From: an uncultured Clostridia bacterium
GTDB lineage: Bacteria > Bacillota > Clostridia > Christensenellales > DTU072
Assembly: GCA_944371785.1 (NCBI GenBank)
Contig: CALVXZ010000008.1
Location: 1 to 32,178 of the forward strand
DNA: 32,178 nucleotides
Reading direction: 5' to 3'
Of the stretch, positions 11,876-31,684 are shown piece by piece. Under the pieces are notes generated by a model. That model made no database searches. It saw only the letters and a program-made list of their open reading frames with translations, and was not told the DNA's origin. Every line of letters starts with the position of its first letter. The first letter of the stretch is position 1. Both the position numbers and the translations under genes were made by a program.

Positions 11876-11876
11876 G

Positions 11877-12992: not shown

Positions 12993-13073
12993 TTTTACGG
13001 CGTTCGGGGCGGTTGTCGACCTTAAAAAAGTTTTGACGTAACTGCCCGGACGCGCATACCTTAAGGAGGTAAT

Positions 13074-14492: not shown

Positions 14493-14549
14493 TCTTCCGA
14501 ACGGCTTTGCCGCGTCGCGAAAACTTTACCGAAAGTTGGATCAAAATTC

Positions 14550-14578
14550 TTGATTTCGGCTTAGGTATTATGTAAAAT
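14550..14578 (+). promoter_or_regulatory. Promoter of glgP
   Basis: TTGATT (14550-14555), a 17-base spacer and TAAAAT (14573-14578) form a good sigma-A-type promoter in the 179-base glgA-glgP gap. The expected start near 14585 would put a large hairpin at the beginning of the leader. Confidence 0.7.
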
Positions 14579-14590
14579 AAAAATTCCGAA

Positions 14591-14631
14591 CATATCCCGT
14601 GTGTGCGCGCACGAGGCGCCGGCGGGATATG
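14591..14631 (+). promoter_or_regulatory. Leader hairpin upstream of glgP
   Basis: CATATCCCG (14591-14599) pairs perfectly with CGGGATATG (14623-14631). The 23-base interior contains the palindromes GTGCGCGCAC (14603-14612) and GGCGCC (14616-14621), so further folding is likely. No T run follows, so it is a poor terminator. It sits about six bases after the predicted transcription start and about 40 bases before the glgP ATG. An RNA element or a DNA operator are both possible. Confidence 0.6.
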
Positions 14632-14671
14632 ATTTGTGTTTAAAACCATATAAAACCACTACGGAGGATCA

Positions 14672-17089
14672 ATGGCAAATATTTCTAAATCTGAAATCAA
14701 AAGGCTGATGGAGCTGACTCTGGCGAAAAATTTCGGCGTGCGCTCCGACGAAGCCAACGACAACATGGCATACCGCGCTCTGTGCACGGTCGTAAAAGAT
14801 ATATTGACGCAAAAACGCCTGGAATACAAAAACAAAGTGCGTTCCAAAGGATACAAGCAGGTGTATTATATGTCGATGGAATTCCTGCTGGGCAGGAGCC
14901 TTAGGAACCATCTTTACAACATCGGGCTTTTGGACGAAGCGCGCGCCGCGGTGAAAGAACTCGGATACGATATAGATAAACTGATGTCGATAGAACCCGA
15001 CGCAGGTTTGGGAAACGGCGGTCTGGGCAGGCTGGCGGCGGCTTATTTGGATTCGCTGACTTCCCTGGGGTATCCCGCCGGCGGTTTCAGCATCCGCTAC
15101 GATTACGGTATCTTCGAACAGAAGATAGTGGACGGTTGGCAGATGGAGATGCCCGACAATTGGCTGCAGGACGGCGACGTCTGGCTGAATAAACGCGACG
15201 AAGTTTTCGAAGTTAAATTCGGCGGCAGGATAGAAGAACATTGGGAAAACAACAGGCTGATATGCGAACAAAAGGGGCATACCACGATTTTGGCGGTGCC
15301 TTACGATATGAATATTTCCGGCTACGGTTCCGACGCGGTAAACGTGCTGAGGCTGTGGAGCGCGAAATCTCCCGTTGAATTGGATATGAATATGTTCTCC
15401 CGCGGGGAGTACGTAAAAGCCATAGAATCGCAGGCGATGGCGGAATCGATCAGCAAGGTGCTGTATCCCGCCGACAACCATATCGAAGGTAAGTCGCTGC
15501 GTCTGAAACAACAGTATTTCTTTGTTTCGGCTTCGATTCAGTCGATTTTGTACAAGCATCTGAAATATAACAAGGACTTATCCAATCTTTCCGAAAAGAT
15601 CGCCATTCACATCAACGATACGCACCCGACTTTGTGTATCCCCGAACTGATGCGTATCCTTTTGGACGATTACGGATGGAGTTGGGATAACGCCTGGAAG
15701 ACCGTTACGGAAGTCATCAGCTATACCAACCACACCGTAATGCAGGAGGCTTTGGAACGTTGGCCGCAGGCACTGTTCAAGAGTCTGCTTCCGCGTATCT
15801 ACCAGATCATAAAGGAAATAAACCAACGCTACTGCGCCGATCTGTGGAACGTCTTCCCCGGGGATTGGCAACGTATCAGCGCGAACGCGATTTTGTCCGA
15901 TACCGAGATCCGTATGGCGAATCTCTGCCTCGTGGCGTCGCATACGGTAAACGGCGTTTCCGCACTGCACAGCGAAATACTTAAAAACGACGTTTTCAAA
16001 GACTATTACAAGGTCGCGCCCGAAAAATTCACAAACGTAACCAACGGAATAACGCACCGCCGCTGGCTGTGCGAGGCAAATCCGCTGCTGGCGGACCTGA
16101 TAAAGGATCTGATAGGCGATAAGTTTATCGTCAAAGCCGACGAGTTGGAAAAGCTTTTGGCGTTCCAGGGCAACACCGACGTTTTGGATAAGCTGTTTGA
16201 AATCAAACGGCAGAACAAAGCGCGTCTGGCAAACTATATCAAACAGACCACCAATATTTCCGTGGATCCGGATTCCATATTCGACGTGCAGGTAAAGCGT
16301 CTGCACGAATACAAACGCCAGCTGTTGAACGCGTTGCACATTCTGCACCTGTACAACAAGTTAAAGGAAAATCCGAATTTGGATATCTGTCCCAGGACCT
16401 TCATTTTCGGGGCAAAGGCGGCAAGTTCGTATTATATGGCAAAGCTGATCATACGCCTGATTTATATGATCGGGAAGATGGTCAACGACGATCCCGCGGT
16501 GAACAAGAAACTGAAAGTCGTATTCCTTGAAAACTACCGCGTATCCCTGGCGGAAATAATTATGCCCGCCAGCGAAATAAGCGAACAGATCTCCACCGCC
16601 GGAAAAGAAGCTTCCGGTACGGGGAATATGAAGTTTATGATAAACGGCGCGGTGACGATAGGGACCATGGACGGCGCCAACGTAGAGATACACGAAAGAG
16701 TAGGCGACGAGAACATATTCATTTTCGGCCTGTTGGCGGAGGAAGTGGAAAAGCTGAGGAGCCATTACAATCCCACGTCCTATTACAATTCCGATCCCAG
16801 GATCAAAGCCATCATCGATCTGCTGAGGCGCGGCATTGCCGGGACCTCCTTCCAGGAGATCGCCGATTCGCTGACGGTAGGCAGAGGCTCCTCTCCGGAT
16901 CCGTATATGGTGCTTGCCGATTTCGGATCCTATGTGGACGCGCAGTCCGCCGTCGATCAGGCTTACCGCGACAAACACCGTTTCGAAAAGATGTCCCTGG
17001 TGAACATCGCGCGTTCCGGTTTCTTTGCCGCCGACAGGAGCGTGGAAGAATACGCACGCCGCATTTGGCGTCTTAAAAAAGTTAAATAG
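14672..17089 (+). CDS. glgP: Glycogen/alpha-glucan phosphorylase (GT35)
   Basis: This 805-residue enzyme releases glucose-1-phosphate from glycogen with inorganic phosphate and pyridoxal phosphate. Typical segments are seen in order: YYMSMEFLLGRSLRNHL, EPDAGLGNGGLGRLAA, YGIFEQKI, INDTHPTLCIPELMRI, TNVTNGITHRRW, DVQVKRLHEYKRQLLN, and the cofactor site EASGTGNMKFMINGA with the PLP lysine at 654. The length is normal for the family. GGAGG precedes the ATG. It has its own promoter, so breakdown can be set apart from synthesis. The GH13 gene starts 19 bases after its stop and probably shares its transcript. Confidence 0.98.
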   Translation: MANISKSEIKRLMELTLAKNFGVRSDEANDNMAYRALCTVVKDILTQKRLEYKNKVRSKGYKQVYYMSMEFLLGRSLRNHLYNIGLLDEARAAVKELGYDIDKLMSIEPDAGLGNGGLGRLAAAYLDSLTSLGYPAGGFSIRYDYGIFEQKIVDGWQMEMPDNWLQDGDVWLNKRDEVFEVKFGGRIEEHWENNRLICEQKGHTTILAVPYDMNISGYGSDAVNVLRLWSAKSPVELDMNMFSRGEYVKAIESQAMAESISKVLYPADNHIEGKSLRLKQQYFFVSASIQSILYKHLKYNKDLSNLSEKIAIHINDTHPTLCIPELMRILLDDYGWSWDNAWKTVTEVISYTNHTVMQEALERWPQALFKSLLPRIYQIIKEINQRYCADLWNVFPGDWQRISANAILSDTEIRMANLCLVASHTVNGVSALHSEILKNDVFKDYYKVAPEKFTNVTNGITHRRWLCEANPLLADLIKDLIGDKFIVKADELEKLLAFQGNTDVLDKLFEIKRQNKARLANYIKQTTNISVDPDSIFDVQVKRLHEYKRQLLNALHILHLYNKLKENPNLDICPRTFIFGAKAASSYYMAKLIIRLIYMIGKMVNDDPAVNKKLKVVFLENYRVSLAEIIMPASEISEQISTAGKEASGTGNMKFMINGAVTIGTMDGANVEIHERVGDENIFIFGLLAEEVEKLRSHYNPTSYYNSDPRIKAIIDLLRRGIAGTSFQEIADSLTVGRGSSPDPYMVLADFGSYVDAQSAVDQAYRDKHRFEKMSLVNIARSGFFAADRSVEEYARRIWRLKKVK

Positions 17090-17107
17090 GGAGCCCGAAA
17101 CGCATTA

Positions 17108-18820
17108 ATGCTGAAATTTGACTCCCGTAATACGCGTTATAAAAAGCCGTTCGGAGCAGTTGCCGCAGGCAATACGGTTTACTTTAAATTCCCCGTTTCC
17201 GAAGACGTCGCCGCCACGGGCGCGGCGTTGGTTTACCGCGGAGCGGAGGAAGGTAAACTGTCATTGACCAAATTCGGCGACGCCGACGGCTTTACCGTAT
17301 TCACGGGGGCGGCGGTGTTCAACACCCCCGGCATTTATTATTACCGTTTCGAAATATACCGAGGCGGAGAAACCCTATACGCCGGGCGCGCCGGCGCGGA
17401 CGGCAGGGCGACTATAGGCGAATGGCTGAAAGAATGGCAGCTGACGGTATACGACCCTTCTTTCAAATCCGCCGAATGGTTGAAAGGACGGATAATATAT
17501 CATATATTTCCCGACAGATTCTGCCGCGTGGAGGACGGCAAACGTCCTATGTACGGGCGCTTCAAAAGCTGGGGAAAGGAATTGACGATATTCGATCCCG
17601 ACGGGGTCTATCGCGCCAACGACTTTTACGGCGGAAACATAAAGGGCGTGCTGACCAGGCTGAAGTACCTGAAGTCTTTGGGCGTGGGCGCAATATATTT
17701 CAGCCCCGTGTTCGATTCGCATTCCAATCACAGATACGATACCGGCGATTATATGCGCATAGATCCGCTTTTCGGCAGCGAAGAAGAATTCAAAATGCTG
17801 ATTTCCGAATGTGAAAAGCTGGATATCGGCATTATTTTGGACGGAGTTTTCAACCATACCGGCGCGGACAGCCTGTATTTCAACAAATTCGGCAGGTATC
17901 CCGGGATCGGCGCATATCAATCGAAGAACAGCTTCTATTACCCGTGGTATACTTTCATCAACTACCCCGACGAGTATGTGTGTTGGTGGGGCGTGACCGT
18001 GGTGCCCACCGTCAGAAGGGACTGCGAGGAGTTCCAGAATTTCATCGCGGGAGAGGGCGGAGTCATCGAAAAATGGACCGAACTCGGCGTAAAAGGCTGG
18101 CGTCTGGACGTCGCCGACGAGCTTTCGACTCCGTTTTTGGAAAAAATACGGAAAAAGGTCAAGTCCATGGGGGACGTCGCTTTGATAGGCGAGGTGTGGG
18201 AGGACGCCAGCACAAAGGTGAGCTACGGCGAAAAGCGCAGCTATCTGTTCGGGCACCAGCTGGACGGCACGATGAACTACCCTTTCCGCACGGCGATATT
18301 GGCTCTTTTCAAAGACAGAAACGGCGCGGAGTTCGTGAATTCCGTTATGACCATAGCCGAAAACTATCCTCACGACGCTCTGTATCAGTCGATGATCCTT
18401 TTGGGAACGCACGACACCGTCAGGATAATTACCGCCTTGGGCGGCGATCACACCATGCGTACCAAGACCGAACGGCTCAGGTACAGAATGCCTCACGGCG
18501 AATACAAAGAGGCGCAGAGAAAGCTGAAGACGGCTTCGGCGATACAATATTTTCTGCCCGGACTTCCCACGATATATTACGGCGACGAAATAGGTATGCA
18601 AGGTTACGAAGATCCCATAAACAGACGTCCTTACGCATACGGATACGAAGACGTCGAATTATTGGCGCATTACCGGTATCTTGGCAAGATCCACGCCGAT
18701 TTCCCGGAAGAATTTTCGATAGAGTACCGCCGCAATTATATTTCCATTACACGCGGACGTTACACTTTGCAGGTGTCCACGGACGATCTGTCTTATAAGA
18801 TAATCGAAGTCGGCGTCTGA
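17108..18820 (+). CDS. GH13 alpha-glucan hydrolase (neopullulanase/alpha-amylase type)
   Basis: This 570-residue protein has no signal peptide and so acts in the cytoplasm. An N-terminal beta domain of about 115 residues precedes RIIYHIFPDRF, the usual start of the catalytic barrel. The four GH13 regions are present: DGVFNHTG, GWRLDVADE (nucleophile Asp334), IGEVWED (Glu362) and LGTHDT (Asp436). YGDEIGMQGYEDP resembles maltogenic amylases and neopullulanases. The exact substrate cannot be read from sequence; maltodextrins or branched limit dextrins are likely. It follows glgP directly, and no glgX or pullulanase gene is visible, so it may finish the chains that phosphorylase leaves. The GGGAG upstream is about 14 bases from the ATG, longer than ideal. 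Confidence 0.92.
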   Translation: MLKFDSRNTRYKKPFGAVAAGNTVYFKFPVSEDVAATGAALVYRGAEEGKLSLTKFGDADGFTVFTGAAVFNTPGIYYYRFEIYRGGETLYAGRAGADGRATIGEWLKEWQLTVYDPSFKSAEWLKGRIIYHIFPDRFCRVEDGKRPMYGRFKSWGKELTIFDPDGVYRANDFYGGNIKGVLTRLKYLKSLGVGAIYFSPVFDSHSNHRYDTGDYMRIDPLFGSEEEFKMLISECEKLDIGIILDGVFNHTGADSLYFNKFGRYPGIGAYQSKNSFYYPWYTFINYPDEYVCWWGVTVVPTVRRDCEEFQNFIAGEGGVIEKWTELGVKGWRLDVADELSTPFLEKIRKKVKSMGDVALIGEVWEDASTKVSYGEKRSYLFGHQLDGTMNYPFRTAILALFKDRNGAEFVNSVMTIAENYPHDALYQSMILLGTHDTVRIITALGGDHTMRTKTERLRYRMPHGEYKEAQRKLKTASAIQYFLPGLPTIYYGDEIGMQGYEDPINRRPYAYGYEDVELLAHYRYLGKIHADFPEEFSIEYRRNYISITRGRYTLQVSTDDLSYKIIEVGV

Positions 18821-18906: not shown

Positions 18907-20595
18907 TTAACGTTCCTGATCGTCTTTGAAGACGAAGGAGCTTTCGCGGTTGAGTTTGGCTTTTGCCATATCCCTCAGAACGAATTTCTGAATTTTTCCG
19001 GAAGCCGTCATCGGCAATTGGTCGATAAATTCGACGTAGGAAGGTACTTTGTGGCGCGCCATATTGTTCGCGACGTAAGTCTGGATATCCTTTTCGGTGA
19101 CGTTGCTGCCGGCGCGCTTGATAACGAACGCATACGCTTCTTCGCCGTATTTTTCGGAAGGAACGCCGACGATCTGTACGTCCACGACGTCGGGATGCGT
19201 GTAGATGAAATCTTCGATCTCTTTCGGGAAGATGTTTTCGCCGCCGCGGATGATCATATCCTTTATTCTGCCGGTGATGCGGTAGTATCCGTTCGGATCG
19301 CGGATGGCAAGGTCGCCGGTATGCAGCCAACCGTCTTTGTCGATAGCCGCAGCGGTAGCTTCGGGCATCTTGTAATATCCCTTCATAACGTTGTATCCGC
19401 GGACTACGAATTCGCCGGGCTGACCGTCGGGAAGGTCTTCTCCGGTATCCGGATCGACGATTTTGGTTTCCATAAACGGCATTTCTTTGCCGACGGTATT
19501 GACCCTGATCTCCAACGGATCGTCCACAGTGGTCATCGTGCAGGCGGGCGAAGCCTCGGTCTGTCCGTAAGTGATGGTGATCTCCGGCATGTGCATTTTG
19601 TCTATGACGTCGCGCATGACTTTTACGGGGCAGGGGGAACCAGCCATGATGCCCGTCCTGAGGCTTGAAAAATCGTACCTGGAAAAGTCGCGGTGTTCCA
19701 GCACCCTGATGAACATAGTCGGAACGCCGTGTACCGCGGTACATTTTTCGTACTCTACGGCGTGCATGACCTTCATGGGCGTGTACCACAGCAGAGGTAC
19801 CATTGCCGCGCCGTGAGTGACCGCCGCCATTATCGCCAACACCATACCGAAGCAGTGGAAGAAGGGGACGGGAATGCAAAGTTTGTCCTTTGCGGTGAAC
19901 TTCATGCAGTCGCCGATGGCTTTGCCGTTGTTGACGATGTTGTTGTGCGTCAGCATGACTCCTTTCGGGAAGCCCGTGGTGCCGGAGGTGTACTGCATAT
20001 TTACGACGTCGTCCGGGTCTATGGAATGTTTCAGGGCGTTGTATTCGTCGTTGCTGACCAATACTCCGAAATAAGGTATCTGCGACCAGTTGTACATTCC
20101 GTCGTACCAATTGTCCAACGAAACGACGTACCTTAAGAAGGGAAGCCTTTCGTTGCGGAGCTCGCCGGGTTTGGAAGTTTTCAATTCGGGGCAGACGGAA
20201 TATATGATTTTTTCGCAGTCGATATCCTTTATGCCGTCGCAGATGAACAGCGCTTTGGAATCGGAGTTCGACAGCAGGTATTCCAATTCGGCTTCCTTGT
20301 AGTTCGTGTTGACGGTCACCAGCACGGCGCCGATACGGGCGGTGGCGAAAAACAGCACCAGCCATTCGGGATAGTTGGTAGCCCATATCGCGACGTGGTC
20401 GCCTTTGCAAATGCCCATGCCCAACAGACCTTTCGCGTATTTATCGACTTCTTTGTTGAATTCGTAATAAGTCCTGGTATAGTTGACTTCTATGTACTTT
20501 ACCGCCAGCTTGGTAGGGTACTTTTTCGCGATATTGCTTAACATATCGCCAACGGTGATGTTCATTAATTTTTCAGCAGTCTTTTCTTTTTCCAT
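18907..20595 (-). CDS. Acyl-CoA synthetase (AMP-binding, FadD-like)
   Basis: This 562-residue adenylate-forming enzyme activates a carboxylic acid with ATP to an acyl-AMP and then an acyl-CoA. The phosphate loop YTSGTTGFPKG lies at 202-212. YGQTEASP, WLHTGDLA, the hinge region YRITGRIKDMIIRGGENIFP and the C-terminal PMTASGKIQK with catalytic Lys534 are all present. The overall pattern is that of FadD/medium-to-long-chain fatty acyl-CoA synthetases. Chain length cannot be read. AGGT lies seven bases before the ATG at 20595; a second start at Met11 is possible. It is the last gene of a three-gene minus-strand cluster, 41 bases after the phosphatase gene, and ends at the strong terminator at 18849-18879. 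Confidence 0.93.
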   Translation of the reverse strand: MEKEKTAEKLMNITVGDMLSNIAKKYPTKLAVKYIEVNYTRTYYEFNKEVDKYAKGLLGMGICKGDHVAIWATNYPEWLVLFFATARIGAVLVTVNTNYKEAELEYLLSNSDSKALFICDGIKDIDCEKIIYSVCPELKTSKPGELRNERLPFLRYVVSLDNWYDGMYNWSQIPYFGVLVSNDEYNALKHSIDPDDVVNMQYTSGTTGFPKGVMLTHNNIVNNGKAIGDCMKFTAKDKLCIPVPFFHCFGMVLAIMAAVTHGAAMVPLLWYTPMKVMHAVEYEKCTAVHGVPTMFIRVLEHRDFSRYDFSSLRTGIMAGSPCPVKVMRDVIDKMHMPEITITYGQTEASPACTMTTVDDPLEIRVNTVGKEMPFMETKIVDPDTGEDLPDGQPGEFVVRGYNVMKGYYKMPEATAAAIDKDGWLHTGDLAIRDPNGYYRITGRIKDMIIRGGENIFPKEIEDFIYTHPDVVDVQIVGVPSEKYGEEAYAFVIKRAGSNVTEKDIQTYVANNMARHKVPSYVEFIDQLPMTASGKIQKFVLRDMAKAKLNRESSFVFKDDQER

Positions 20596-20636
20596 ATTTT
20601 ATACCTGCGAATTTAATATAGTTTTTTGGGGAAAAG

Positions 20637-21872
20637 TTACAGCGACAGCCATTGACATATCAGCCGGAAGATATCCGTGTTGTCGATCTCTTCGGGTATA
20701 TTCATCTGTTCGCTGTAGTTGATTTCCAGGTACTCGCTCGCGCCGGAGGCGTCGCTTTCGTCCGCAGCGGCATTCTGCGCCTTTACGGTACCGGTCGCGT
20801 ATATGAAATAATTGACGTTATCGGAAGTGTGACCGGTCCTTTTGAACCAGCCGTCGCTGGATTCGTAATCGATCAGAGCTTCTCTGGCTTCCTGTTTTGC
20901 CATATTGGCGTCGGCGTTGTCGAAATCGGGAATTTCCAATCCGCCCGTTTCGTGATCCGCGGTGACCATTACCACCGTGTTTCCGTTGGCTTGCGCCCAA
21001 TCGCGGCAGGTCTTTACTGCGGCGTCGAAGGCGTTCAGTTCCGCAAGCATCGATTCCATATCGTTATCGTGCGAAGCCGAATCTATCTTGCTGCCTTCCA
21101 CTACAAGCAGGAAACCGTTGTCGTTGTCTTCGGACAGTTTTTCCAAAGCCGACGAGGTCAGGTAGCTGAGCGTGTCCGTGCCGGCGGTCCGGATCGAACC
21201 GTCTTCCAACAATCCGTAGATCTTTTCCGAATCGGATGCGGCAATTTCATCGAAAGTAGTGCACAGCGCACGGTTTTCGGTGGCGATCTCGGACTTCAGA
21301 GCGTTCATCGAATCGTCGGTCAGTCCGTACAGTACGTCCAGATCGAAATCGACGATCTGCCTGGCTATCGAATCGGTTTCGCCGCGGTCCTTGGCGTGGG
21401 AAAGGAACGCCGCGGGCGTGGCGTCGGTGACGGGTTTGGTCACGACGACTCCGACTTTCTTGCCGGCTTCTTTTGCCATTTCCGCAACGGTTTCCAAATT
21501 TTTGCCGTCCTTATAGGATATCCTGCCGTTGTATGTTTTGGTGCCCGTCGCCATTGCCGTGGCGGCAGCCGCCGAATCGGTGGCTCCCGGGGTCAGCGAA
21601 CGCGTCATCACTTCGCCGATCACGGCGAAACGTTCCATATTCAGCTTGTTGCTGCGATAAATATTGCCTGCTTCGATATGGTTTTCTCCCATACCGTCGC
21701 CGATCAGCAATATGACGTTCTGAGGACGGGCGCCGGATTCCGGGTATACGCCGGAATCGACGTAATTCAGCGCGAACAGCACTGCGGCGGTAGCCAAAGT
21801 AACTACCAGGATTATCGCTATGATGATCAGCAAAAATCGGTTTTGTTTTTTTCTGTCGACAGCCTTAGCCAT
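20637..21872 (-). CDS. Membrane-anchored alkaline phosphatase (PhoA family)
   Basis: This 411-residue protein has a short basic N-terminus and one membrane helix at about 12-36, with no lipobox or obvious cleavage site, so the enzyme is probably tethered outside the cell. Catalytic features match alkaline phosphatase: LLIGDGMG (metal ligand Asp59), ATDSAAAATAMATG with nucleophile Ser100, TKPVTDATPAAFLSHAKDRG, VVEGSKIDSASHDND (Glu259, Asp264, His268), TADHETGGLE (Asp306, His307) and GHTSDNV (His348). It releases phosphate from external phosphomonoesters. AAGGAG lies before the start. It is the middle gene of the cluster, 45 bases after the acetyltransferase gene; the gap has a small GTCC/GGAC hairpin at 21905-21916. 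Confidence 0.94.
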   Translation of the reverse strand: MAKAVDRKKQNRFLLIIIAIILVVTLATAAVLFALNYVDSGVYPESGARPQNVILLIGDGMGENHIEAGNIYRSNKLNMERFAVIGEVMTRSLTPGATDSAAAATAMATGTKTYNGRISYKDGKNLETVAEMAKEAGKKVGVVVTKPVTDATPAAFLSHAKDRGETDSIARQIVDFDLDVLYGLTDDSMNALKSEIATENRALCTTFDEIAASDSEKIYGLLEDGSIRTAGTDTLSYLTSSALEKLSEDNDNGFLLVVEGSKIDSASHDNDMESMLAELNAFDAAVKTCRDWAQANGNTVVMVTADHETGGLEIPDFDNADANMAKQEAREALIDYESSDGWFKRTGHTSDNVNYFIYATGTVKAQNAAADESDASGASEYLEINYSEQMNIPEEIDNTDIFRLICQWLSL

Positions 21873-21917
21873 ATTTTTCTCCTTATTCCTTTACGCGCCC
21901 GTGCGTCCGTGCGGACA

Positions 21918-22889
21918 TCAATATTTTTCGTATAGCGCGAGGTTGTATTCCGGGAAAAGCTCCTTCAGCGGGCTGAACGGATACTCCTTCCCGTGACCCA
22001 GGACAGTCCTCAGAAGTTCGCCTTCCGTCATGAAATACGCAAAGCCTTCGCTTTCTTCAAACCTCGTCGTCTGTCCGTCGTTTACTTCAAGTTCATACGT
22101 CTTACCGCTTACGGAAAAGCGCGCGTTTAAAGTCACTCCCCTCATGGGGAGAAGTCGTAGCAACGCGGAAAGATTCAACGTCTTTCCCATCGAGTAGGGG
22201 TCGCCGCCTGAAGCGGGCAGCGGCACTCTTTTGTTTGCAAGTTCCTTTACGCCGTCGAACGCGTCGTCGGCAGCGGACATCGCCTCCGCGATATTTCCGT
22301 TGTCTATCAAAACATAAGCGTTCGGGGTACCGTTTCTATAAATAATGTATCCCGAATCGCATACTGTTGTAAACATATCGACGACTGCCTGTTGTTCCGA
22401 AGCGGAACGGAAAACGTGCGCCGGAAAGCGTTTTGCCCATTCCGTGTACACGAAATAAGTATCCGCCCACAGATCTTTCGTCAGCGGTTTCAGCGTATAT
22501 TCCGCGCCGTACGGAGATGGGTAAAACCCTTTTGTTTCGTTGATCGTGACGTACCCCAGACGCGAATAAAAATCGTGGTTGAACGGGTGCAGCATCACGA
22601 AAGGAAAGCCTTCCTCCTTCAACGCCGCTTCGACGTCCGCCAGCAGCGATCTGCAGTTTCCGCGGTTGCGTGCGTCGGGTCTTGTGGCTACTCCCGTCAC
22701 GAACGGTATGCGGACGGTCTTGCCGTAAATCCGTGCGGCAACGATTTTGACGTAAGCCGCCGCGGCTACTCCTTTTCCGTCGCTTAGCGTAAAAGGACGC
22801 GCGCCGACGTTGTCGAAAAAGTAGTCGACGTAAGCTTCGTCGCCCGGGAAACAGGCTATATGCAGATTTTTCAGTTCCTGAATATGCAT
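21918..22889 (-). CDS. Eis-like GNAT N-acetyltransferase
   Basis: This 323-residue cytoplasmic protein carries the acetyl-CoA-binding motif VTGVATRPDARNRGNCRSLL (64-83), a variant of the V-x-P-x-x-R-x-x-G pattern, followed by LHPFNHDFYSRLGYV, which is typical of the Eis-type GNAT family. The remainder has a second GNAT-like half and a C-terminal SCP2-like region (GVTLNARFSVSGKTYELEVN, then EGFAYFMTEGELLRTVLG). It is shorter than Mycobacterium Eis (about 400 residues). Substrates of such proteins range from amines and aminoglycosides to lysines; nothing here picks one. The ATG lies eight bases from a -10 box with no Shine-Dalgarno sequence. It leads the minus-strand cluster. Confidence 0.85.
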   Translation of the reverse strand: MHIQELKNLHIACFPGDEAYVDYFFDNVGARPFTLSDGKGVAAAAYVKIVAARIYGKTVRIPFVTGVATRPDARNRGNCRSLLADVEAALKEEGFPFVMLHPFNHDFYSRLGYVTINETKGFYPSPYGAEYTLKPLTKDLWADTYFVYTEWAKRFPAHVFRSASEQQAVVDMFTTVCDSGYIIYRNGTPNAYVLIDNGNIAEAMSAADDAFDGVKELANKRVPLPASGGDPYSMGKTLNLSALLRLLPMRGVTLNARFSVSGKTYELEVNDGQTTRFEESEGFAYFMTEGELLRTVLGHGKEYPFSPLKELFPEYNLALYEKY

Positions 22890-23194: not shown

Positions 23195-26100
23195 ATGAAA
23201 AAAAAGTGCGCGTTGATCTTAATGATAATTCTTGCGGGGCTTGCGGTGCTGACCGCCTGTAACGATCCCGTAGAGATAGAATCCATTTCCATTTCTGAAA
23301 AAGCCGAAGATTTCAAAACAGATTACATAGTCGGCGAAGAATTAGATCTGACCGGCATTCTGCTGACCGTCACGCGCACGGACGGCAGCTCTTACGACGT
23401 ATACGCCGAAGACATCCGTCAGGATCTGAGGATACTCAACTTTTCCACGTCGCGTCCCGCGGAAAAGCTGACGGTGATCCTTGAATACAAAGAAGTCAGA
23501 ACCTCTTTCGACATAGTTGTCAGAACCGACGAAGAGGGGGCTTTGAGGTATACGGTCACTTTCGATTCCATGGGCGGCAGCGCGGTGGAACCGCAATCGG
23601 TGCCCGCTTATTCGATGGCTGTGGAGCCGGCTGCCCCGGTGCTGGAAGGGTACGCTTTCAAAGGCTGGTATACCGAAACCACCTATAACAACATTTTCAA
23701 TTTCTCCACCACGAACATAACATCCGAAATCACCTTGTATGCAAGGTGGGCGGAACTGCACACCGTATCGTTCTATGAGCTGAAAGAAGGCGTCGATCCC
23801 GAAACCGCCGATCCCGACGTCAATCCCGACGATTACGTCCTGTTGCAATACAGCGAAGTACCCGACGGGGACTCTCTGTCGGCGGCGCCCGCCGTCCCCA
23901 CAAAGGAAGGCTTTAACGGAGTATGGGACAGGACGGTGTTTTCGTCCATAGCCGGGGATCTGAAGGTCTACCCGGTTTATTCCGCGATCTATTACACCGT
24001 CACTTTCGTCGCTGAGGGCGAGGAAGGCGAAAATTTATTGGGAACTTTGGTCAACGTCCGCAAAGGCACGGTGTTGCAGGACGAGGACGGCAATCTGCAC
24101 CCCGATTTTGCCGAACAGATAAATGAATTCATCAGACTTGCGAAAGAACTGTCGATACCGGGGCAGGAATTTTCGGGCGATTGGTATCCGGGGCTGTCCG
24201 ATCCGATAGAATCGAATCTTACGTTGGTAGCCAATTTCGGCGCCGTATACCTTACCGTCAGCCTGATGATGAACGACGGCACCGACAAGGCGTTCGCCGA
24301 GATCCCGGTACAATACAATCTGACGCTTTCTCAAAACGACATCCCGGACGAGCCCCCCCGCAGGGACGGTTATGCGTTCGACGGTTGGTATTCCGACAAA
24401 GACTGCACTTCGCCCTGGAACTTTACGACGTCGATAACTTCCGAAAGGAAGATCTATGCGGGCTGGAGAGAATTGTTGGAAGTTTCCTTCTACATACCCG
24501 TGAACGCCGGGCTGGAATATGTGACTCCCCCGGAATACGACGACGATATGGGCTTCGAGGCGGGCGGCGTCGAATACAGATTATATACGACGGTGTTAGT
24601 GCCCTCGGGCGGCAGGGTGGAAGCTTCCGCGGCCGCGGTCCCGCAGGCAGTCGGGCATACGGGAAAGTGGGTGTACCGCGATTCCGGTCAGACTTTCAAC
24701 GGAGCCGAATCCTTGGGAATCGACGTTGATATACGCGCTTCGTACGAAGCCATCGATTATCTGGTCCGTTTCATATCCGACAACGTGGCGGTATATTCCG
24801 TCGAAGTGCCTTACGGCGGCTTCGTGGATCCGCCCGCGGATCCTTCTTTGGCAGGGCATTCGTTCGTTTATTGGACGATGAGCGGCGAAGAAGTTACCGA
24901 TTTTTCGACGCTGAAAATAACTTCCAACGTCGATTTTACGGCGGCGTTCGAAGCCAATACCTACAGAGTGGAATTCTATTATTACACTTCCAGCCAGGCC
25001 GCCGACAGCTCCGTCGCGGTTCAATACGGCTATTCGTTCACTTTCCCCGAAGCGCAGAACACTTCTTCCAGGCTGACGGGCTGGTACGCCTCCGCGGACT
25101 ATGCCACGTCTTCGCAATGGGAAGCCGGAGTGCCGCTGACGGATGCGAACATAGAATCGCGCACCGGAAAGACGATCGACTTTGACGATATCGGCGAAGG
25201 CTCCACGGTGCTGACGCTGTATGCCGGTTGGGTGAGGCAGTACACCTTGGTGTTCCAGGACGAAAAAGGAGCGGCGCTGGGTTCGTCGCGCACGTTGGAT
25301 CAAGGCACCGCCGTCACCGAAGATATGGCTCCCGAAGTCGCGGAGCGCGAAGGCTTCGAACTGAATTGGGTCATAATCGAGAACGGTCAGACGGGCGGCG
25401 AATTCAAATTCGGCACCGAAATTTCCACCGATCTGACTTTGCGCGCGCAGTTTGTGCCGCTGGATTACGAAGTCAGCTTCGAAATCGAATTCAGATACTC
25501 CGACAACACCGTAAAGAGCAGTTACGTCTTTACGGAGCGCACGACGCTTATCGCTCACGGCAGCATTATCGGCGAAGCCAACATTCCTACGGCGGACGAC
25601 CTTTCCGCCGCCGAAGAGAAAGCCATTGCGGCGGGAACGGGGCATACCGTACTTCCGGAAGATTTCGGTTTTGAATGGACTTCCGGCGATTATAACACGA
25701 TATCCAACACAAAGATCGATGCCGCCGACGTCAGGTTCGTGGCGTATTGCTACGTCAGGACGTTTACGGTGAATTGGTATTCCACCGAATCGGGAGAACT
25801 GACGGAAGACGCCGTGATTTATTCCGCCGAAGTCGAATTCGGCAGGCGCGCCCCGGAATTCGGCGGCGAAACTCCCGTTAAACCGGGCAGCACGTTCAAC
25901 GGATTCTTCGTTTACACTCCCGAAGGAGAAATTCCCGGTTCCACCACCAACGTGACGAAGGACCTTGCGTTAAGGCCGTCGTTTACTCCCATACAATACA
26001 AAATCGCATTCATCGGTCCCGGAAACGTCATTTATAGACAATACGATTTCAACAACCAGGAAAAGCCGTTGAATGCCGACAACGAGGCTTCGTACAGTTA

Positions 26101-29100
26101 CGGCGACATCATCCGCCTGACCGAAGGCATCGCCAATTTGCCTTCCAGCGTGCGCTATTCCGACATAGCGGTGACCGGATACGACATTACCGGTTGGAAC
26201 GTTACTGACGGCAACAACTTGTATTTCGACGCCGATGCCGGCAAATGGTATCTGCCGGCATCCGCTCCCGCGGGGGAAGATACGGACAGTTACATTCTGA
26301 TATCGATGGGCGGAAATTATTATAAAGTGTCCGCCGCAGCCGGGATCTATGCCGCGGTGCAGGGATGGTCGCCCGACAAAACCGATAACGAACTGTTCAC
26401 CGATTTCGACGCCGACGGCGAATACAGATATTATTTCGACGCCGTATTCGTTTACGTTACGGAGGACGTGGATTTCACTTTGCAAAGGAAGGTAACGGAA
26501 TACGACGTCACGTTGCATTATTCCGAAACGCAGACGGAAACCTACGTTATTTCCCACAATTCGCAGGTGCCGGAGCCCGCAAACGTCGTAGCGGAAGGTA
26601 AAGTGTTCATCGGTTGGTACACCGACGAATCTTATTCCGTAAGATACGATTTCTGTCTGCCCGTCACTTCAAGTTTCGATTTGTGGGCAAGGTGGGATGA
26701 ATACGTCGAAGGTTCCGCCGGCATAACGTACGAAGTCGACGAAGAAAACGGTTTGTCCGCCATAGCGATAGGCTATGACGAAAGCTTATTGGATACCGAA
26801 GAAATAACCGCTTCGCAAGGCAAATTGCAGATAGCGAACTATTATCTGCCGGAAGACGGCGGCGCCGGCGTGCCCGTTACCAGGATAGGTACGGGAGCGT
26901 TTGCGAACCTGCCCGACATGGTCACCGAGATCGTCATTCCCGATTCCGTTACGGCTTTCGGCGACAACGCTTTCGAAGGCAGCGGTCTGGTCAGGATAGT
27001 GCTGCCGGAGGCGCTGACGTCCATTCCCGTGAACTGTTTCAAAAACGCCGACAAATTGGAAACCGTAGTCTTCCGTTCGGCGGGATCGCTGACCTCGATA
27101 GGCAACTATGCGTTCTTCGGGTGCGTTTCGCTGAAATTGGACGTATTGTATACCGCGTCGGATTACGAAGGCGAAAACATAATTTCCGACGGCGGTCTTT
27201 CCTTGCCGGAAGGGCTTTCCGTCATAGGAAAAGGCGCGTTCCTTAACGATTCTTCCGTGACGGTAGTCAGATTCCCGTCCACCGTTACCGTTATCGGCGC
27301 AGACGCGTTTATGGGTACCGAACTTAAATTCGTGGTCACCTCCTCCGATTATATCGAGTTGGGAGCGAACGCTTTCGAAAACACCGCCGATTGGCACGAA
27401 GCGTTCAGAGTGTTCGTGCCCGACGTAGGAACTTACGGCGGAATGGGCTGGGAACAGCTTGCCGGAAAGATTTACCGCAAGGACGATATCTCGAACGATT
27501 GGGCGTACGTATTGCAGGAAAATTCCAATCTGGTGACGGCGGTCCAATACCTCGGCAACGACTCCGAAGTGACCGTTCCCGAAACGCTGGCAGGCAGAAA
27601 CGTCGGCGCGATAGGCGATCACGCTTTCGGAAAGGGAGTGACAAAGGTCACGTTCTCCGCCGATATCAAATTGAGCGATCTGACTTTCGCGGCGGCTACG
27701 GAAATAGCCGAAATAGTCGTCAAACGCGACGACGGCGATTATTACGCCGACAACGGCGCCGCGCTGACGAACGCTTTCCAACGCGGACTGTACGATCTGA
27801 AGACTCTTTCGTTCATAAATCCGGATCAGAGCGTAGTATCGATCCTGGGCGGCAGAACTTTGCCGAATTCCGTACAAACGGTAAAAATCGAAATTTCGGG
27901 AACGTATTGGGCGGAGGTGCCCGAATCATTCCTCAGCGGCGCCGCCAACGTCACCGAAGTGATAATTTCCGGCGCAAACGTCCTGTCGATAGGCGACAGA
28001 GCGTTCTACGGTATGACAAGGCTGAAAAAGGTCAGCTTTAACGGCACTACTGCGTTGACGGGAATAGGCGTTTCTGCCTTCGAAGGCGACAAGGCGCTTA
28101 ACGATGTTTATTCGAACGGCAGTCCCGGGTTGCCCGATTCCTTGACGGAAATAGGCGAAAACGCGTTCGGATCGGTGCCGTGGATAGCTTCGTTCTCCGA
28201 GGGCGGATTCACCATTGTAGGTAACGGAATACTTTATGCTTATTCCGGAAATTCGGAAATAGTCCGTATCCCGAAGGAAATAACTTCTGTATCCCCCGGC
28301 GCGTTCGGCGGCCGCAACGGGATAAAGACGATATTGATCCCCGTGGCCTCCGGCGTGACGTTGGAAATAGGCATAGGGGCTTTCGAGGAAATGCCCGCCC
28401 TGGAAGCCGTTTATATAGACGGTTCCGCCGATATAGCTTCGGGCGCATTCACCGATTCCTCTAAATTCGTGGCTTTGGTCGTCAACGGAACGTTGAATAT
28501 CGAATCGGGAGCGTTGGACGGCACGTTGTACGGCGACGGCGCTTACGAGCCCGGTTCGGGCGACAAGTCGCCGTTGAGCATATATACCGTCGGCGACATC
28601 TCGACGGAAGATTCCAAATATTCGTCGCTGAACGTTTCCGGCAGAAGTATCGGTATCGGCGAAGACGGCTGGCTGTATTTGGAAGACGTCAACAGTAATT
28701 ATACGGCGATAAAATACATCGGAAACGGGGATTCCTATGCGTATAACGAACGTATCACGTTGTCCGACACATACCGTTATGTGGCGGGATACGCTTTCCC
28801 GCGCGGTGCCGCAGACGTGGAAATCTATACGTCGCTGCAACCGTCCAATTCGTTCTCGCCTTTCGGCGGACTGACAGAAACGACTACGCTGACGCTGATG
28901 GTCAACGTTTCAGGAAACGACGGCACCGGCAGCGTCCGCAGCGGTACGGGTGCCGACAACTTGTTGTATGCGTTGGTGAACGCTTCGAAAGCCGGCGGAG
29001 TACAGGTCAGGATCAACGCGGCTCCCGCAGGGTACGGGATCAGCCTCAAAACGGTATTCGGATTGGACGAAAACGCTGCTCTTTCGTCAAAGATAAACTC

Positions 29101-31684
29101 TTTGGAAATTATCGTTTCGGACGCTTCGGAGGAAATTTCCGACGATTTCGTATACGGACTCGGCGGCATAGACGTAATCACCGTGACCAACGGGGCGGAA
29201 ACGCTGCCGTTGAAATCGGCAGAAAGCCTGTTGGAGGGCATTTCGATAGGGCAGCGCGCCTTCAGAGATACCGGCTGGATGGCAACCCAGAGCGACCTCG
29301 TAATGATAGGCGGCACGCTGATAGACGCAAAGAGCCTGTCCCCCGTAATAAAGCTGGGTTCGAACGTGACTGCGATAGCCGGCTACGCTTTCGCGGAACG
29401 TCCGATAGAAACTTTGGTGATAGAAAAAGGCGAAGGCACGATCAAATTGGATCCTTACGCTCTGTTCGGAGCCGAAAACATAATGCGCGTGTATGTGTCT
29501 TCCGGCACGGTCACCGTCGGCGGTAACGGTAATCTGACCCTCAGCGGAGGCAGAAGGCTGACGCTGTTCGACGACGCGACTTGGGGCGGCGTGCAGGCGA
29601 TCAACGAAACCGTGCCCGTGACCGACGTCAGACTTATGGAGATCGCAGGCGATTCCGGCGTCGTTCAATATATCGTCAGTCAGTCCGGAAAATTGTACAT
29701 GTACCGCGAATTCACCGAAGAAGACGGCGTTTATATCGGCGATTCCACCGATATAGTCATTCCCGAAAAATTGGAATACGTCATCGACTCCGGTTCGCCA
29801 GTCATACACACCAAATACGCCGTGACTTCCTTCGGTTCCAACATCTTGTATTCCGAAACGGTCAAAGTAGGCATACCTTACGGCGCATATGGCGCCGCGG
29901 CAAGCGCTTTCGGCAACCTCGGGTCGTTAAGCGAATTGGAAATCGTCATTTCGGGCGACGGCACAGGCGGCAGCGTATCCGGACAGGAGATCCGCAACAT
30001 AATTTCCGCACATTCGGTATCCCGTCTGGTATATAACGGTTCCGTCACGTTACAGGAACTGTTGGGCAGCAACGAAAGCGATTCCGGTATCAGCGGCAGG
30101 ATCACCGAAATCGAGATTACCTACGGCACCGTGGAAACGACGGACAACCTGTTGAGCGGTTGGGATTCGATCTCGTCGGTCATATTCCCGGACACGATCC
30201 GCAAAGTCGGCGTCAATTCGTTGGAAAACACCGTTTATTATCGGAGCATATTAAGCAACCACGTGATTTTGGGCGGAGTATTGTATTACCGTTACATTCC
30301 GCCTACCGGCACGGGACAGACCGAGATAACCATTCCTAAGCAAGTCCTGGTGGTAAATACGGACGCGTTCGCCGATCTGGGTCTGCCCGTCCGCACCATA
30401 AACTTCGAAAGCGGTTCGGTGGCGGAACAGATCCTCGACGGCGCGTTCCGCAACTGCACGGAGCTGACGAACGTGCGTCTGCCCGCCTCTTTGACTAAGG
30501 TCAGCGAAAGCGCCTTCGAATTCACGGGTATCGTCGCCGAAAACGGCTTGTTGACTACCGGCTACTACGACGGCGGCAGGGTAATTATAAAATACACCGG
30601 CACCGCTACGGAACTCGTTATGGATCAGGATATCAAAGTCATAGCCGCCGAAGCTTTTGCTGGCAACACGAATTTGGAATCGATAACCTTTATGGGCGAT
30701 TCGGCTATCATTTCCATAGGCGAAAGCGCGTTCGAAGGCTGCACGAAATTGTCCGAGATCAGCGGAATAGTATCTTCGTCCTCGATACGCTATGTCGGCA
30801 CAAACGCCTTCGAAGGCACGGCGTGGCTGAATTCGCAGCCCGAAGGGGCGGTATACATCGGCGTCGAAGGCGTAGACAGAGTGTTGTACCGTTACGGCGG
30901 AGAATCGGAATTCATCGTATATTCGGATCTGTATTCGATAACCGAAAGCGAGATCGAAAAGATGGCGGGTTCCGTAACCGCATTGGTGTTCCAGAACAAT
31001 TCCAGAGTTATCGGAGAACAGATGCTGAATCGGTTGGCTTCGCTGCCGGGAGTTTACAAAGTGAGCGTAACGGGCGAGGAGAAACTTTCCGATGTATTGG
31101 GCGGCATTCACGCCAACATAACCGACGTCGATCTGACCACCGAAAACGCGATCGTCGCGGAGGCGTTGGCAGGTTGGAGCTCCGTATACAACGTATTTAT
31201 ATATAACGCAACTGCGATCGGCGAGAACGCTTTTGCCGGCACGGCGTGGCTGGGATCGCTGAGCCACGACGCAAACGGAATAATCTTTTCCGGCAAATAT
31301 ATTCTGGACGTCGAAAACGTGGACGTGACCGAGATATCTTATACCGACGATCCCGGGTACGAATACGTCGCGGCGGATGCGTTCGGCGGTGCGGATTGGC
31401 TGATCACGATAGATTTTTCGTCCTTACAATCGTTAAAACGGCTTCCCGAAAACGTATTTTCGGGATGCGAAAACTTGGAATACGTCATATTGCCTTCGGG
31501 TATCGAAGTGCTGACGGCGATGTTCTCGCCTGACGTTCAAATAACGCTGGAACTGACCGGTGCGCCCGACGCTCTGGAAATCACCGAAGCGGCGGTTACG
31601 GGAGTGCAATACATTAAAGTGCCCGAAATAAATTTGGAAGCATACCGTTCGAAGTTCAAGGACATCGCCGCGCTGTTTATATAA
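23195..31684 (+). CDS. Giant surface lipoprotein with InlB-type and BspA-type leucine-rich repeats
   Basis: This 2829-residue protein starts with a lipoprotein signal (MKKKCALILMIILAGLAVL, lipobox LTAC, Cys22), so it should be lipid-anchored on the outer membrane face. Residues of about 25-110 look like a bacterial Ig-like (Big_3) domain. From about 115 to 1170 comes a series of InlB_B-type repeats, clearest as GYAFKGWYTETTYNNIFNF (about 153), GYAFDGWYSDKDCTSPWNF (about 393), and GKVFIGWYTDESYSVRYDF (about 1135). From about 1226 to 2780 come BspA-type leucine-rich repeats (VTRIGTGAFANLP, ITEIGENAFG, VTAIAGYAFAERP). No sortase signal or catalytic domain is seen. Proteins of this build usually mediate adhesion or binding to host, matrix or glycans; that role is inference. 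A weak GGAAG ribosome binding site precedes the ATG. Confidence 0.95.
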   Translation: MKKKCALILMIILAGLAVLTACNDPVEIESISISEKAEDFKTDYIVGEELDLTGILLTVTRTDGSSYDVYAEDIRQDLRILNFSTSRPAEKLTVILEYKEVRTSFDIVVRTDEEGALRYTVTFDSMGGSAVEPQSVPAYSMAVEPAAPVLEGYAFKGWYTETTYNNIFNFSTTNITSEITLYARWAELHTVSFYELKEGVDPETADPDVNPDDYVLLQYSEVPDGDSLSAAPAVPTKEGFNGVWDRTVFSSIAGDLKVYPVYSAIYYTVTFVAEGEEGENLLGTLVNVRKGTVLQDEDGNLHPDFAEQINEFIRLAKELSIPGQEFSGDWYPGLSDPIESNLTLVANFGAVYLTVSLMMNDGTDKAFAEIPVQYNLTLSQNDIPDEPPRRDGYAFDGWYSDKDCTSPWNFTTSITSERKIYAGWRELLEVSFYIPVNAGLEYVTPPEYDDDMGFEAGGVEYRLYTTVLVPSGGRVEASAAAVPQAVGHTGKWVYRDSGQTFNGAESLGIDVDIRASYEAIDYLVRFISDNVAVYSVEVPYGGFVDPPADPSLAGHSFVYWTMSGEEVTDFSTLKITSNVDFTAAFEANTYRVEFYYYTSSQAADSSVAVQYGYSFTFPEAQNTSSRLTGWYASADYATSSQWEAGVPLTDANIESRTGKTIDFDDIGEGSTVLTLYAGWVRQYTLVFQDEKGAALGSSRTLDQGTAVTEDMAPEVAEREGFELNWVIIENGQTGGEFKFGTEISTDLTLRAQFVPLDYEVSFEIEFRYSDNTVKSSYVFTERTTLIAHGSIIGEANIPTADDLSAAEEKAIAAGTGHTVLPEDFGFEWTSGDYNTISNTKIDAADVRFVAYCYVRTFTVNWYSTESGELTEDAVIYSAEVEFGRRAPEFGGETPVKPGSTFNGFFVYTPEGEIPGSTTNVTKDLALRPSFTPIQYKIAFIGPGNVIYRQYDFNNQEKPLNADNEASYSYGDIIRLTEGIANLPSSVRYSDIAVTGYDITGWNVTDGNNLYFDADAGKWYLPASAPAGEDTDSYILISMGGNYYKVSAAAGIYAAVQGWSPDKTDNELFTDFDADGEYRYYFDAVFVYVTEDVDFTLQRKVTEYDVTLHYSETQTETYVISHNSQVPEPANVVAEGKVFIGWYTDESYSVRYDFCLPVTSSFDLWARWDEYVEGSAGITYEVDEENGLSAIAIGYDESLLDTEEITASQGKLQIANYYLPEDGGAGVPVTRIGTGAFANLPDMVTEIVIPDSVTAFGDNAFEGSGLVRIVLPEALTSIPVNCFKNADKLETVVFRSAGSLTSIGNYAFFGCVSLKLDVLYTASDYEGENIISDGGLSLPEGLSVIGKGAFLNDSSVTVVRFPSTVTVIGADAFMGTELKFVVTSSDYIELGANAFENTADWHEAFRVFVPDVGTYGGMGWEQLAGKIYRKDDISNDWAYVLQENSNLVTAVQYLGNDSEVTVPETLAGRNVGAIGDHAFGKGVTKVTFSADIKLSDLTFAAATEIAEIVVKRDDGDYYADNGAALTNAFQRGLYDLKTLSFINPDQSVVSILGGRTLPNSVQTVKIEISGTYWAEVPESFLSGAANVTEVIISGANVLSIGDRAFYGMTRLKKVSFNGTTALTGIGVSAFEGDKALNDVYSNGSPGLPDSLTEIGENAFGSVPWIASFSEGGFTIVGNGILYAYSGNSEIVRIPKEITSVSPGAFGGRNGIKTILIPVASGVTLEIGIGAFEEMPALEAVYIDGSADIASGAFTDSSKFVALVVNGTLNIESGALDGTLYGDGAYEPGSGDKSPLSIYTVGDISTEDSKYSSLNVSGRSIGIGEDGWLYLEDVNSNYTAIKYIGNGDSYAYNERITLSDTYRYVAGYAFPRGAADVEIYTSLQPSNSFSPFGGLTETTTLTLMVNVSGNDGTGSVRSGTGADNLLYALVNASKAGGVQVRINAAPAGYGISLKTVFGLDENAALSSKINSLEIIVSDASEEISDDFVYGLGGIDVITVTNGAETLPLKSAESLLEGISIGQRAFRDTGWMATQSDLVMIGGTLIDAKSLSPVIKLGSNVTAIAGYAFAERPIETLVIEKGEGTIKLDPYALFGAENIMRVYVSSGTVTVGGNGNLTLSGGRRLTLFDDATWGGVQAINETVPVTDVRLMEIAGDSGVVQYIVSQSGKLYMYREFTEEDGVYIGDSTDIVIPEKLEYVIDSGSPVIHTKYAVTSFGSNILYSETVKVGIPYGAYGAAASAFGNLGSLSELEIVISGDGTGGSVSGQEIRNIISAHSVSRLVYNGSVTLQELLGSNESDSGISGRITEIEITYGTVETTDNLLSGWDSISSVIFPDTIRKVGVNSLENTVYYRSILSNHVILGGVLYYRYIPPTGTGQTEITIPKQVLVVNTDAFADLGLPVRTINFESGSVAEQILDGAFRNCTELTNVRLPASLTKVSESAFEFTGIVAENGLLTTGYYDGGRVIIKYTGTATELVMDQDIKVIAAEAFAGNTNLESITFMGDSAIISIGESAFEGCTKLSEISGIVSSSSIRYVGTNAFEGTAWLNSQPEGAVYIGVEGVDRVLYRYGGESEFIVYSDLYSITESEIEKMAGSVTALVFQNNSRVIGEQMLNRLASLPGVYKVSVTGEEKLSDVLGGIHANITDVDLTTENAIVAEALAGWSSVYNVFIYNATAIGENAFAGTAWLGSLSHDANGIIFSGKYILDVENVDVTEISYTDDPGYEYVAADAFGGADWLITIDFSSLQSLKRLPENVFSGCENLEYVILPSGIEVLTAMFSPDVQITLELTGAPDALEITEAAVTGVQYIKVPEINLEAYRSKFKDIAALFI
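23560..26700 (+). repeat. InlB_B-type repeat region within the giant lipoprotein
   Basis: Units of roughly 70-120 residues recur with a pattern of beta strand (YxVxF), then G-x-x-F-x-G-W-Y, then a closing strand such as ITLYARW, KIYAGW or FDLWARW. At least six units can be recognised, starting near residues 115, 355, 520, 690, 860 and 1100. They have drifted strongly at DNA level, so this is an old array rather than a recent tandem expansion. Confidence 0.75.
26870..31560 (+). repeat. BspA-type leucine-rich repeat region with higher-order modules
   Basis: Short repeats of about 23 residues with the core I-x-x-I-G-x-x-A-F recur through this half. They are interrupted by longer inserts that themselves repeat: a segment with ILGG/LLGS/VLGG leading to a strand and an FLSG/LLSGW/ALAGW turn begins near residues 1546, 1952, 2285 and 2629. 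Each copy is followed by an AF-x-x-T-x-W cap and a strand with GG-x-LY. Confidence 0.7.

What the first reader, a model, noticed from the sequence alone, without database searches (positions are those of the whole stretch)
27831..31480. Higher-order repeat of several hundred residues inside the giant lipoprotein
Beyond the short leucine-rich repeats, a composite module recurs four times, starting near residues 1546, 1952, 2285 and 2629 (spacing about 405, 335 and 345). Each has a (I/L/V)LGG/S turn, a strand such as ITEIEI or ITDVDL, an LSGW/LAGW-like turn, an IG-x-x-AF unit, an AF-x-x-T-x-W cap and a strand with GG-x-LY. This points to growth by duplication of whole modules, perhaps giving four equivalent binding platforms.
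Basis: seen in the sequence. Interest (0 to 1): 0.55.

Follow-up and report, generated by a model that had tools for sequence, protein, structure and literature searches.

The report
Nested repeats in giant surface lipoprotein
A very large protein, probably lipid-anchored on the surface of a gut Clostridia lineage, carries four old, unequal copies of a larger repeat built from smaller leucine-rich repeats; it belongs to a known adhesin-like class, and its lineage seems to have shortened the repeat array rather than grown it.

Summary
The 2829-residue ORF (23195-31684, +) is an LRR_5 (BspA/TpLRR-type) lipoprotein with an InlB-B-repeat stalk. The common core is larger than reported: it begins 52-80 residues upstream and spans 183-274 aligned columns, in register for all six pairs and never reached by 100 block shuffles each. 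Beyond the core the modules differ: M1 and M2 match to their ends, M3 holds three ~98-residue cap units, M4 is short. The duplications are old: caps group by position across 24 proteins of eight genera, F elements less cleanly. Relatives carry a ten-unit, ~94-residue array conserved unit by unit between two genera; the window's clade nests among them and most simply lost about nine units. So growth by duplication is right only for deep history, and four equivalent platforms are not supported. Caps also occur in other families' LRR_5 proteins. Verdict: new member of a known kind; adhesion is inferred.

The parts
23195..31684 (+). ORF of 2829 aa: giant LRR_5 lipoprotein
   Evidence: Pfam LRR_5 245.5 bits (cut-off 27.7), Flg_new 131.9 (27), Big_3 24.7 (21.2); hydrophobic leader ending VLTAC (seen in the sequence)
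23312..23521 (+). Big_3 Ig-like domain (residues 40-109)
23534..26704 (+). stalk region with InlB B-repeat (Flg_new) units (residues ~114-1170; limits approximate)
26705..27829 (+). first LRR_5 block (residues ~1171-1545; limits approximate)
27638..28426 (+). common core of copy 1 (residues 1482-1744)
28808..29506 (+). common core of copy 2 (residues 1872-2104)
29819..30529 (+). common core of copy 3 (residues 2209-2445)
30881..31519 (+). common core of copy 4 (residues 2563-2775)
27830..29047 (+).
29048..30046 (+).
30047..31078 (+).
31079..31681 (+). M4 and C-terminal tail (residues 2629-2829); probably unit U1 of the relatives' array plus a tail
27830..28000 (+). F element 1 (residues 1546-1602)
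   Evidence: HMM start 1549, 26 bits
28151..28309 (+). cap 1 (residues 1653-1705)
   Evidence: 52 bits; helix, hairpin, strand in the model
29045..29203 (+). F element 2 (residues 1951-2003)
   Evidence: 10 bits, weak; profile alignment in register
29246..29404 (+). cap 2 (residues 2018-2070)
   Evidence: 39 bits
30047..30211 (+). F element 3 (residues 2285-2339)
   Evidence: 44 bits; source of the seed
30206..30391 (+). cap 3a (residues 2338-2399)
   Evidence: 27 bits; source of the seed; model less sure here
30500..30661 (+). cap 3b (residues 2436-2489)
   Evidence: 28 bits
30794..30946 (+). cap 3c (residues 2534-2584)
   Evidence: 36 bits
31079..31222 (+). F element 4 (residues 2629-2676)
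   Evidence: HMM start 2630, 29 bits
31217..31399 (+). cap 4 (residues 2675-2735)
   Evidence: 19 bits over 2675-2708

Best explanation
This is probably the distal, ligand-facing part of a fibrillar, lipid-anchored surface protein. A larger unit (some LRR sequence + F + cap + LRRs) was duplicated; copies 1-3 are in the same order in the proteins of eight genera examined. Relatives have a further fixed array of ten ~94-residue units, of which the window's clade has about one. Inferred: the clade lost the other nine. Inferred too: the caps divide the solenoid into segments of about four LRRs and stiffen or bend it, and each segment offers its own face for binding host, mucus or neighbouring-cell ligands, as in BspA-like adhesins.
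For: Domains. Module homology above an LRR background. Caps group by position (7 changes for 6 groups, minimum 5, shuffled mean 71.5), F elements too, less cleanly (7 for 4 groups, minimum 3, shuffled 46.6). AF2 models (pLDDT 82.5 for M1-M2, 87.8 for M3-M4) with a hairpin and following strand in 6 of 6 caps and the helix at the TxW site in 5 of 6. Nearest solved proteins by sequence are BspA/TpLRR-type, also near the top by fold. Ten-unit array grouped by position in two genera; short clade nested among array bearers; M4 mostly closest to U1. Same locus: GNAT-gene matches in the flanks of 15 of 24 genomes, alkaline-phosphatase-like in 12 of 24.
Against: No binding or localisation data. In the F tree the M1 and M2 rows do not form single groups (5 and 6 changes; a single origin in 0% of 200 bootstrap trees), and few columns (53, 67) carry the trees. 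M4 = U1 is clear for L036 and L037, by small margins for the window protein (cap 22.6 v. 21.7), and in L035 cap and tail fit other units better. The stretch before F is, taken alone, no more alike than an ordinary LRR control in most pairs. The gene tree uses this protein (residues 1170-2500), not species markers, and is rooted at its midpoint. Foldseek TM-scores to solved chains are low (query-normalised 0.11-0.19 in the listed rows). Bending was not measured: no coordinates were at hand.
Confidence: 0.72

Rival explanations
1. The apparent modules are only recurring stock LRR_5 units (F and cap types) that a long BspA-type array accumulates, with no duplication of whole modules.
For: Caps occur in other proteins and families (L107 in f3, 51.8 and 41.4 bits; L104 in f2, 42.4 bits without the W site). 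F elements recur in another giant LRR protein of the same bacterial family, two of seven pattern matches being followed by a cap (L068). The pre-F stretches alone are not above an LRR control in most pairs.
Against: All six pairs align best in register over 183-274 columns, more than F + cap. M1-M2 continue to the end of the module. The stretches after caps 1, 2, 3b and 4 align with that after cap 3a over 84-93 columns, caps included. I lowered this rival from 0.25 to 0.15.
Confidence: 0.15
2. Recent growth by duplication in the window lineage, giving four equivalent binding platforms.
For: Four in-register modules.
Against: No tandem DNA repeat with a period up to 500 bases, and only direct repeats of 20-44 bases, 62-95% identical. 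Grouping by position across genera. The window clade is shorter than array-bearing relatives among which it nests. Modules differ in size and conservation.
Confidence: 0.05
3. The LRR part is mainly structural (spacer or envelope scaffold), not a receptor; fixed unit order reflects packing or self-assembly.
For: Fixed ten-unit array in eight proteins of two genera; conserved cap residues; very large size.
Against: BspA, of the same LRR type, binds fibronectin and fibrinogen (PMC2843621, passages); absence of about nine units is tolerated in one clade.
Confidence: 0.2

Closest known systems
BspA-type / TpLRR leucine-rich repeat proteins (Pfam LRR_5; Tannerella BspA, Treponema LrrA, TpLRR)
   Same: LRR_5 profile far above cut-off; solved relatives by sequence 4fs7, 4gt6, 6mlx (TpLRR), 4h09, 4cp6 (PcpA); 6mlx Z 14.6, rmsd 2.0 over 96 residues
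   Different: 2829 residues, an InlB-B-repeat stalk, and nested modules in the same order in eight genera
Fibrillar adhesins (stalk + adhesive domain; Flg_new named as stalk in PMC9210967, passages)
   Same: Long repetitive stalk plus another domain at one end
   Different: Likely N-terminal lipid anchor, so the LRR part is C-terminal; no adhesion shown
Class 1 internalins (InlA) and HupY/LrrG
   Same: LRR and/or B-repeats; NCBIfam matches of 51.0 and 56.6 bits
   Different: Far below the curated cut-offs (1600 and 1250). That InlA has the LRRs first and the B-repeats after them is recalled, not from a call
Other giant LRR proteins of the same bacterial family (L067, L068 from G024)
   Same: F elements (ten HMM matches with the start in L068, 6-38 bits) and caps
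   Different: Other number and order of F elements and caps

Membership tests
LRR_5 / BspA-type LRR proteins | Pfam LRR_5 above the gathering score | tested here: met
   245.5 bits, cut-off 27.7
LRR_5 / BspA-type LRR proteins | TpLRR-type LRR fold | tested here: met
   AF2 models: 6mlx Z 14.6, rmsd 2.0 over 96 residues; 4oju Z 13.9, rmsd 3.3 over 125. Other LRR types follow lower down, and whole-model TM-scores are low
LRR_5 / BspA-type LRR proteins | Surface exposure | not testable with these tools
   Leader ending VLTAC suggests lipidation; no localisation data
LRR_5 / BspA-type LRR proteins | Binds host proteins or other bacteria | not testable with these tools
   Shown for BspA and LrrA by others (PMC2843621, passages)
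Fibrillar adhesin | Known stalk domains | tested here: met
   Flg_new 131.9 bits, Big_3 24.7 bits
Fibrillar adhesin | Adhesive domain distal to the anchor | tested here: inconclusive
   The LRR region would be distal to an N-terminal lipid; adhesion untested
Class 1 internalin InlA | NCBIfam curated score | tested here: not met
   51.0 bits v. 1600
HupY/LrrG adhesin | NCBIfam curated score | tested here: not met
   56.6 bits v. 1250

The most novel reading that the evidence does not exclude
The protein is a segmented solenoid in which each F/cap-bounded unit has its own, non-interchangeable job. The relatives' array keeps unit number (ten) and unit identity between two genera, where one would expect LRR arrays to expand and contract (general expectation, recalled), and the window's clade dropped about nine specific units, perhaps on losing a ligand or host.
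Probability: 0.3. Interest if true: 0.5.

Novelty: new member of a known kind. Interest (0 to 1): 0.32.

Why it matters
It gives a traceable case of higher-order evolution inside a bacterial LRR adhesin-like protein: old duplication of a large unit, then a fixed ten-unit array, then probable loss in one clade. It also gives module boundaries for expression and binding tests in an uncultured gut lineage. The protein class itself is well known.

Tried and rejected
Single-sequence alignment was not enough for M2-M3 and M2-M4; profiles were needed. The stretch before F, compared alone, lines up in register in 6 of 6 pairs but scores only 18.7-56.2, against 27.9-43.9 for the same stretches v. an ordinary LRR block, so I do not call it a separate element.

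A tblastn-type search of one 63-residue cap found nothing in 398 genomes of the phylum, in phages or in plasmids; with no positive control this shows nothing. The phylum-wide F + cap profile (22 of 299 genomes) gave, among the loci I read, ordinary LRRs or "DGVLYDK"-type hairpin islands; I do not count these as caps. In the order 138 of 200 genomes match, ordinary LRRs included; of the three loci outside the family that I read, one has the full cap (L107), one a variant (L104), one none (L105). Fold rows such as plant NRG1C/ADR1, LGR4 and TLRs share the general LRR arrangement and are not taken as relatives. That M4 is a U1/U10 fusion left by a deletion was not borne out: the tail prefers U1 to U10 in the window protein, L036 and L037.

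Literature: the titles and abstract starts listed by searches (top 10-25 of 126, 184, 18, 18 and 415 papers) showed none on this module; one search was uninformative, as one term swamped it. PMC2216083 (LRR concatenation in Protochlamydia) was seen as outline and abstract only.

Rows left out: L042 (5'-open), L059 and L060 were not in the 24-row alignment. The unit tree used 8 of 10 array-bearing proteins (not L042; not L051, where eight caps were found in that stretch, two of them weak), with unit starts taken by me from the HMM hits. L051 was still labelled array-bearing, where 6 of 24 rows bore no label (two interrupted frames, four with other C-termini). M4 had 14 F rows and 4 cap rows. 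hhalign blocks kept only rows covering over 60% of the block.

Full report
What is there. The interval lies in one ORF, window 23195-31684 (+), 2829 residues. From the N-terminus: a hydrophobic leader ending VLTAC, a Big_3 domain (40-109), a stalk with InlB-B-repeat/Flg_new units, and from about residue 1170 on an LRR_5 region. The genome is a 1.54-Mb, 117-contig assembly, 93% complete. Eight same-genus contigs have the lengths of named records of uncultured Clostridia, one of them Candidatus Stercoripulliclostridium pullicola. With the F + cap profile of the third copy the window's genome gives, outside this gene, only weak matches (29.5 and 21 bits).

Is the higher-order repeat real? Yes. 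As every block is made of LRRs, I shuffled 23-column blocks of one partner 100 times per pair; no shuffle reached the observed score, though M1-M4 and M3-M4 pass narrowly. With 80 more residues in front, all six best hits start 52-80 residues earlier in both partners, in the same register. With non-overlapping blocks cut 80 residues earlier, 6 of 6 are in register over 183-274 columns (scores 137-300), 0 of 100 shuffles each, the nearest being copies 1 and 4 (145.3 v. 136.8). So the unit is longer than F + cap, and LGG is a landmark inside it. An iterated HMM of F has matches including its LGG/LFG start at 1549, 1951, 2285 and 2630 only; 1951 is weak (10 bits).

What the unit is. F (~52 residues) reads as LFGG, a loop, LttVxI, a second strand and LL-gW. 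The cap is an LRR into which a short helix and a beta-hairpin are inserted (AFxxTxW...ivGG-LYkYkG...vtIP). AlphaFold2 models from 8-row alignments have mean pLDDT 82.5 (M1-M2) and 87.8 (M3-M4). Read off the DSSP strings, 6 of 6 caps have the hairpin and following strand; 5 of 6 have the helix at the TxW site, while in cap 3b a helix lies on AF; 4 of 4 F elements have a short helix and then strands. Just before F, three of the three modelled copies have a helix (1923-1930, 2263-2272, 2608-2615). The hairpin of cap 3a is modelled with low confidence (63-73, under 50 for three residues).

Modules are not equal. M1 and M2 match to their ends; their second halves alone score 101 v. shuffled maximum 63, 0 of 40. 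M3 has three cap units ~98 residues apart (starts 2338, 2436, 2534). Of nine comparisons of ~90-100-residue units against 40 block shuffles, the observed score was never reached in four, equalled once in four (the tie has the observed score and may be the unshuffled order, since there are only about five blocks) and reached in 6 of 40 for 3c v. M4. Mean identity of relatives to the window is highest in M3 (35.8%, n=22; others 25.0-28.5%).

Age and direction. The C-terminal part matched in 48 of 58 related genomes. I took long regions for 26 of them and aligned 23 with the window: eight genera of the eleven seen in that family. In element trees, 115 cap rows need 7 changes for 6 position groups (minimum 5; shuffled mean 71.5) and 85 F rows need 7 for 4 groups (minimum 3; shuffled 46.6). 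The cap tree is the cleaner; F rows of M1 and M2 do not form single groups. Copies 1-3 thus seem older than the split of these eight genera; M4 F rows exist only for g1, g4, g10 and g11. There is no tandem DNA repeat of period up to 500 bases. Proteins of 2470-2494 residues (g2, g3, g6) show two or three F elements with their start (a further match of 1 bit apart) and none after M3; in the window clade four were found in two proteins and three in the other two, the M2 copy being missed. Eight proteins of 3526-3634 residues (five in g1, three in g10) carry, from the M4 cap on, ten caps at 87-104 residue spacing; their 80 units group by array position (10 changes, minimum 9, shuffled 59.8). So the array was inherited, not grown twice. 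In the gene tree the window clade (window, G006, G001, G009) is sister to array-bearing G008/G012/G003 (96/95), within a 15-row group (100/99) whose nine other labelled rows bear the array; two rows there are unlabelled. Loss of about nine units is the simplest reading. The segment before the M4 cap fits U1 best in 4 of 4 short proteins; cap and tail do so in 3 of 4, narrowly in the window protein, and not in L035. It is the same locus: a GNAT-gene match lies in the fetched flanks of 15 of 24 genomes and an alkaline-phosphatase-like match in 12 of 24 (32 loci searched, eight genomes twice; flanks differ in length).

Known or new? Solved proteins nearest by sequence are 4fs7, 4gt6, TpLRR, 4h09 and PcpA. 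By fold they are TpLRR (Z 14.6, rmsd 2.0 over 96 residues) and 4oju (Z 13.9, rmsd 3.3 over 125), then TpLRR again, PcpA, 4gt6 and 4fd0, the last three with large rmsd. Caps of the same make-up occur outside the family: L107 (f3), twice, and a variant without the W site in L104 (f2). L068, another giant LRR protein of the same bacterial family, has seven pattern matches to F, two of them followed by a cap. These are stock parts; particular here is their fixed order. BspA binds fibronectin and fibrinogen, BspA and LrrA promote co-aggregation and adhesion to epithelial cells, and BspA-like proteins are mostly found in mucosal microbes (PMC2843621, passages). Flg_new is named as a stalk domain in PMC9210967 (passages).

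Mechanism. Shown: architecture, module homology, grouping by position, the array in relatives and its lack here. Inferred: lipid anchoring, projection by the stalk, loss of units, segmentation of the solenoid by F/cap elements, and ligand binding by one or more segments. Four equivalent platforms are unlikely given unequal size, content and conservation.

Noticed in passing
window 23540-24274 and 24242-24985: The stalk has its own higher-order repeat: residues 116-360 align with 350-597 (offset ~234 residues, perhaps three B-repeats; score 292 v. 245 for the best LRR module pair in the same call, no shuffled control).
   Followed up: no
window 10673-18820: Glycogen/starch gene cluster: two nucleotidyltransferase (GlgC-like) genes, starch synthase, phosphorylase and an alpha-amylase-family gene.
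   Followed up: no
window 18907-22889 (-): AMP-binding enzyme, alkaline-phosphatase-like and GNAT genes lie divergently upstream of the lipoprotein; matches to them lie in the flanks of many relatives.
   Followed up: partly
L039 / L076 (G007) and L045 (G011): In two relatives the reading frame of the orthologue is interrupted (a TAA in one; two separate open frames in the other): decay or assembly error.
   Followed up: no
L068: A second kind of giant LRR protein (3875 aa, G024) with repeated LFG...YYIPxxL elements, the last four only 81-152 residues apart.
   Followed up: partly
window 30251-31267 (-), 26786-27877 (-): Long open frames on the strand opposite the lipoprotein gene (338 and 363 aa), most likely a by-product of codon composition.
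   Followed up: no
phage records MT836325, MT836206: Two unannotated phage records from human faeces hold distant tblastn matches to the LRR part (22.5% identity, E 2e-6).
   Followed up: no
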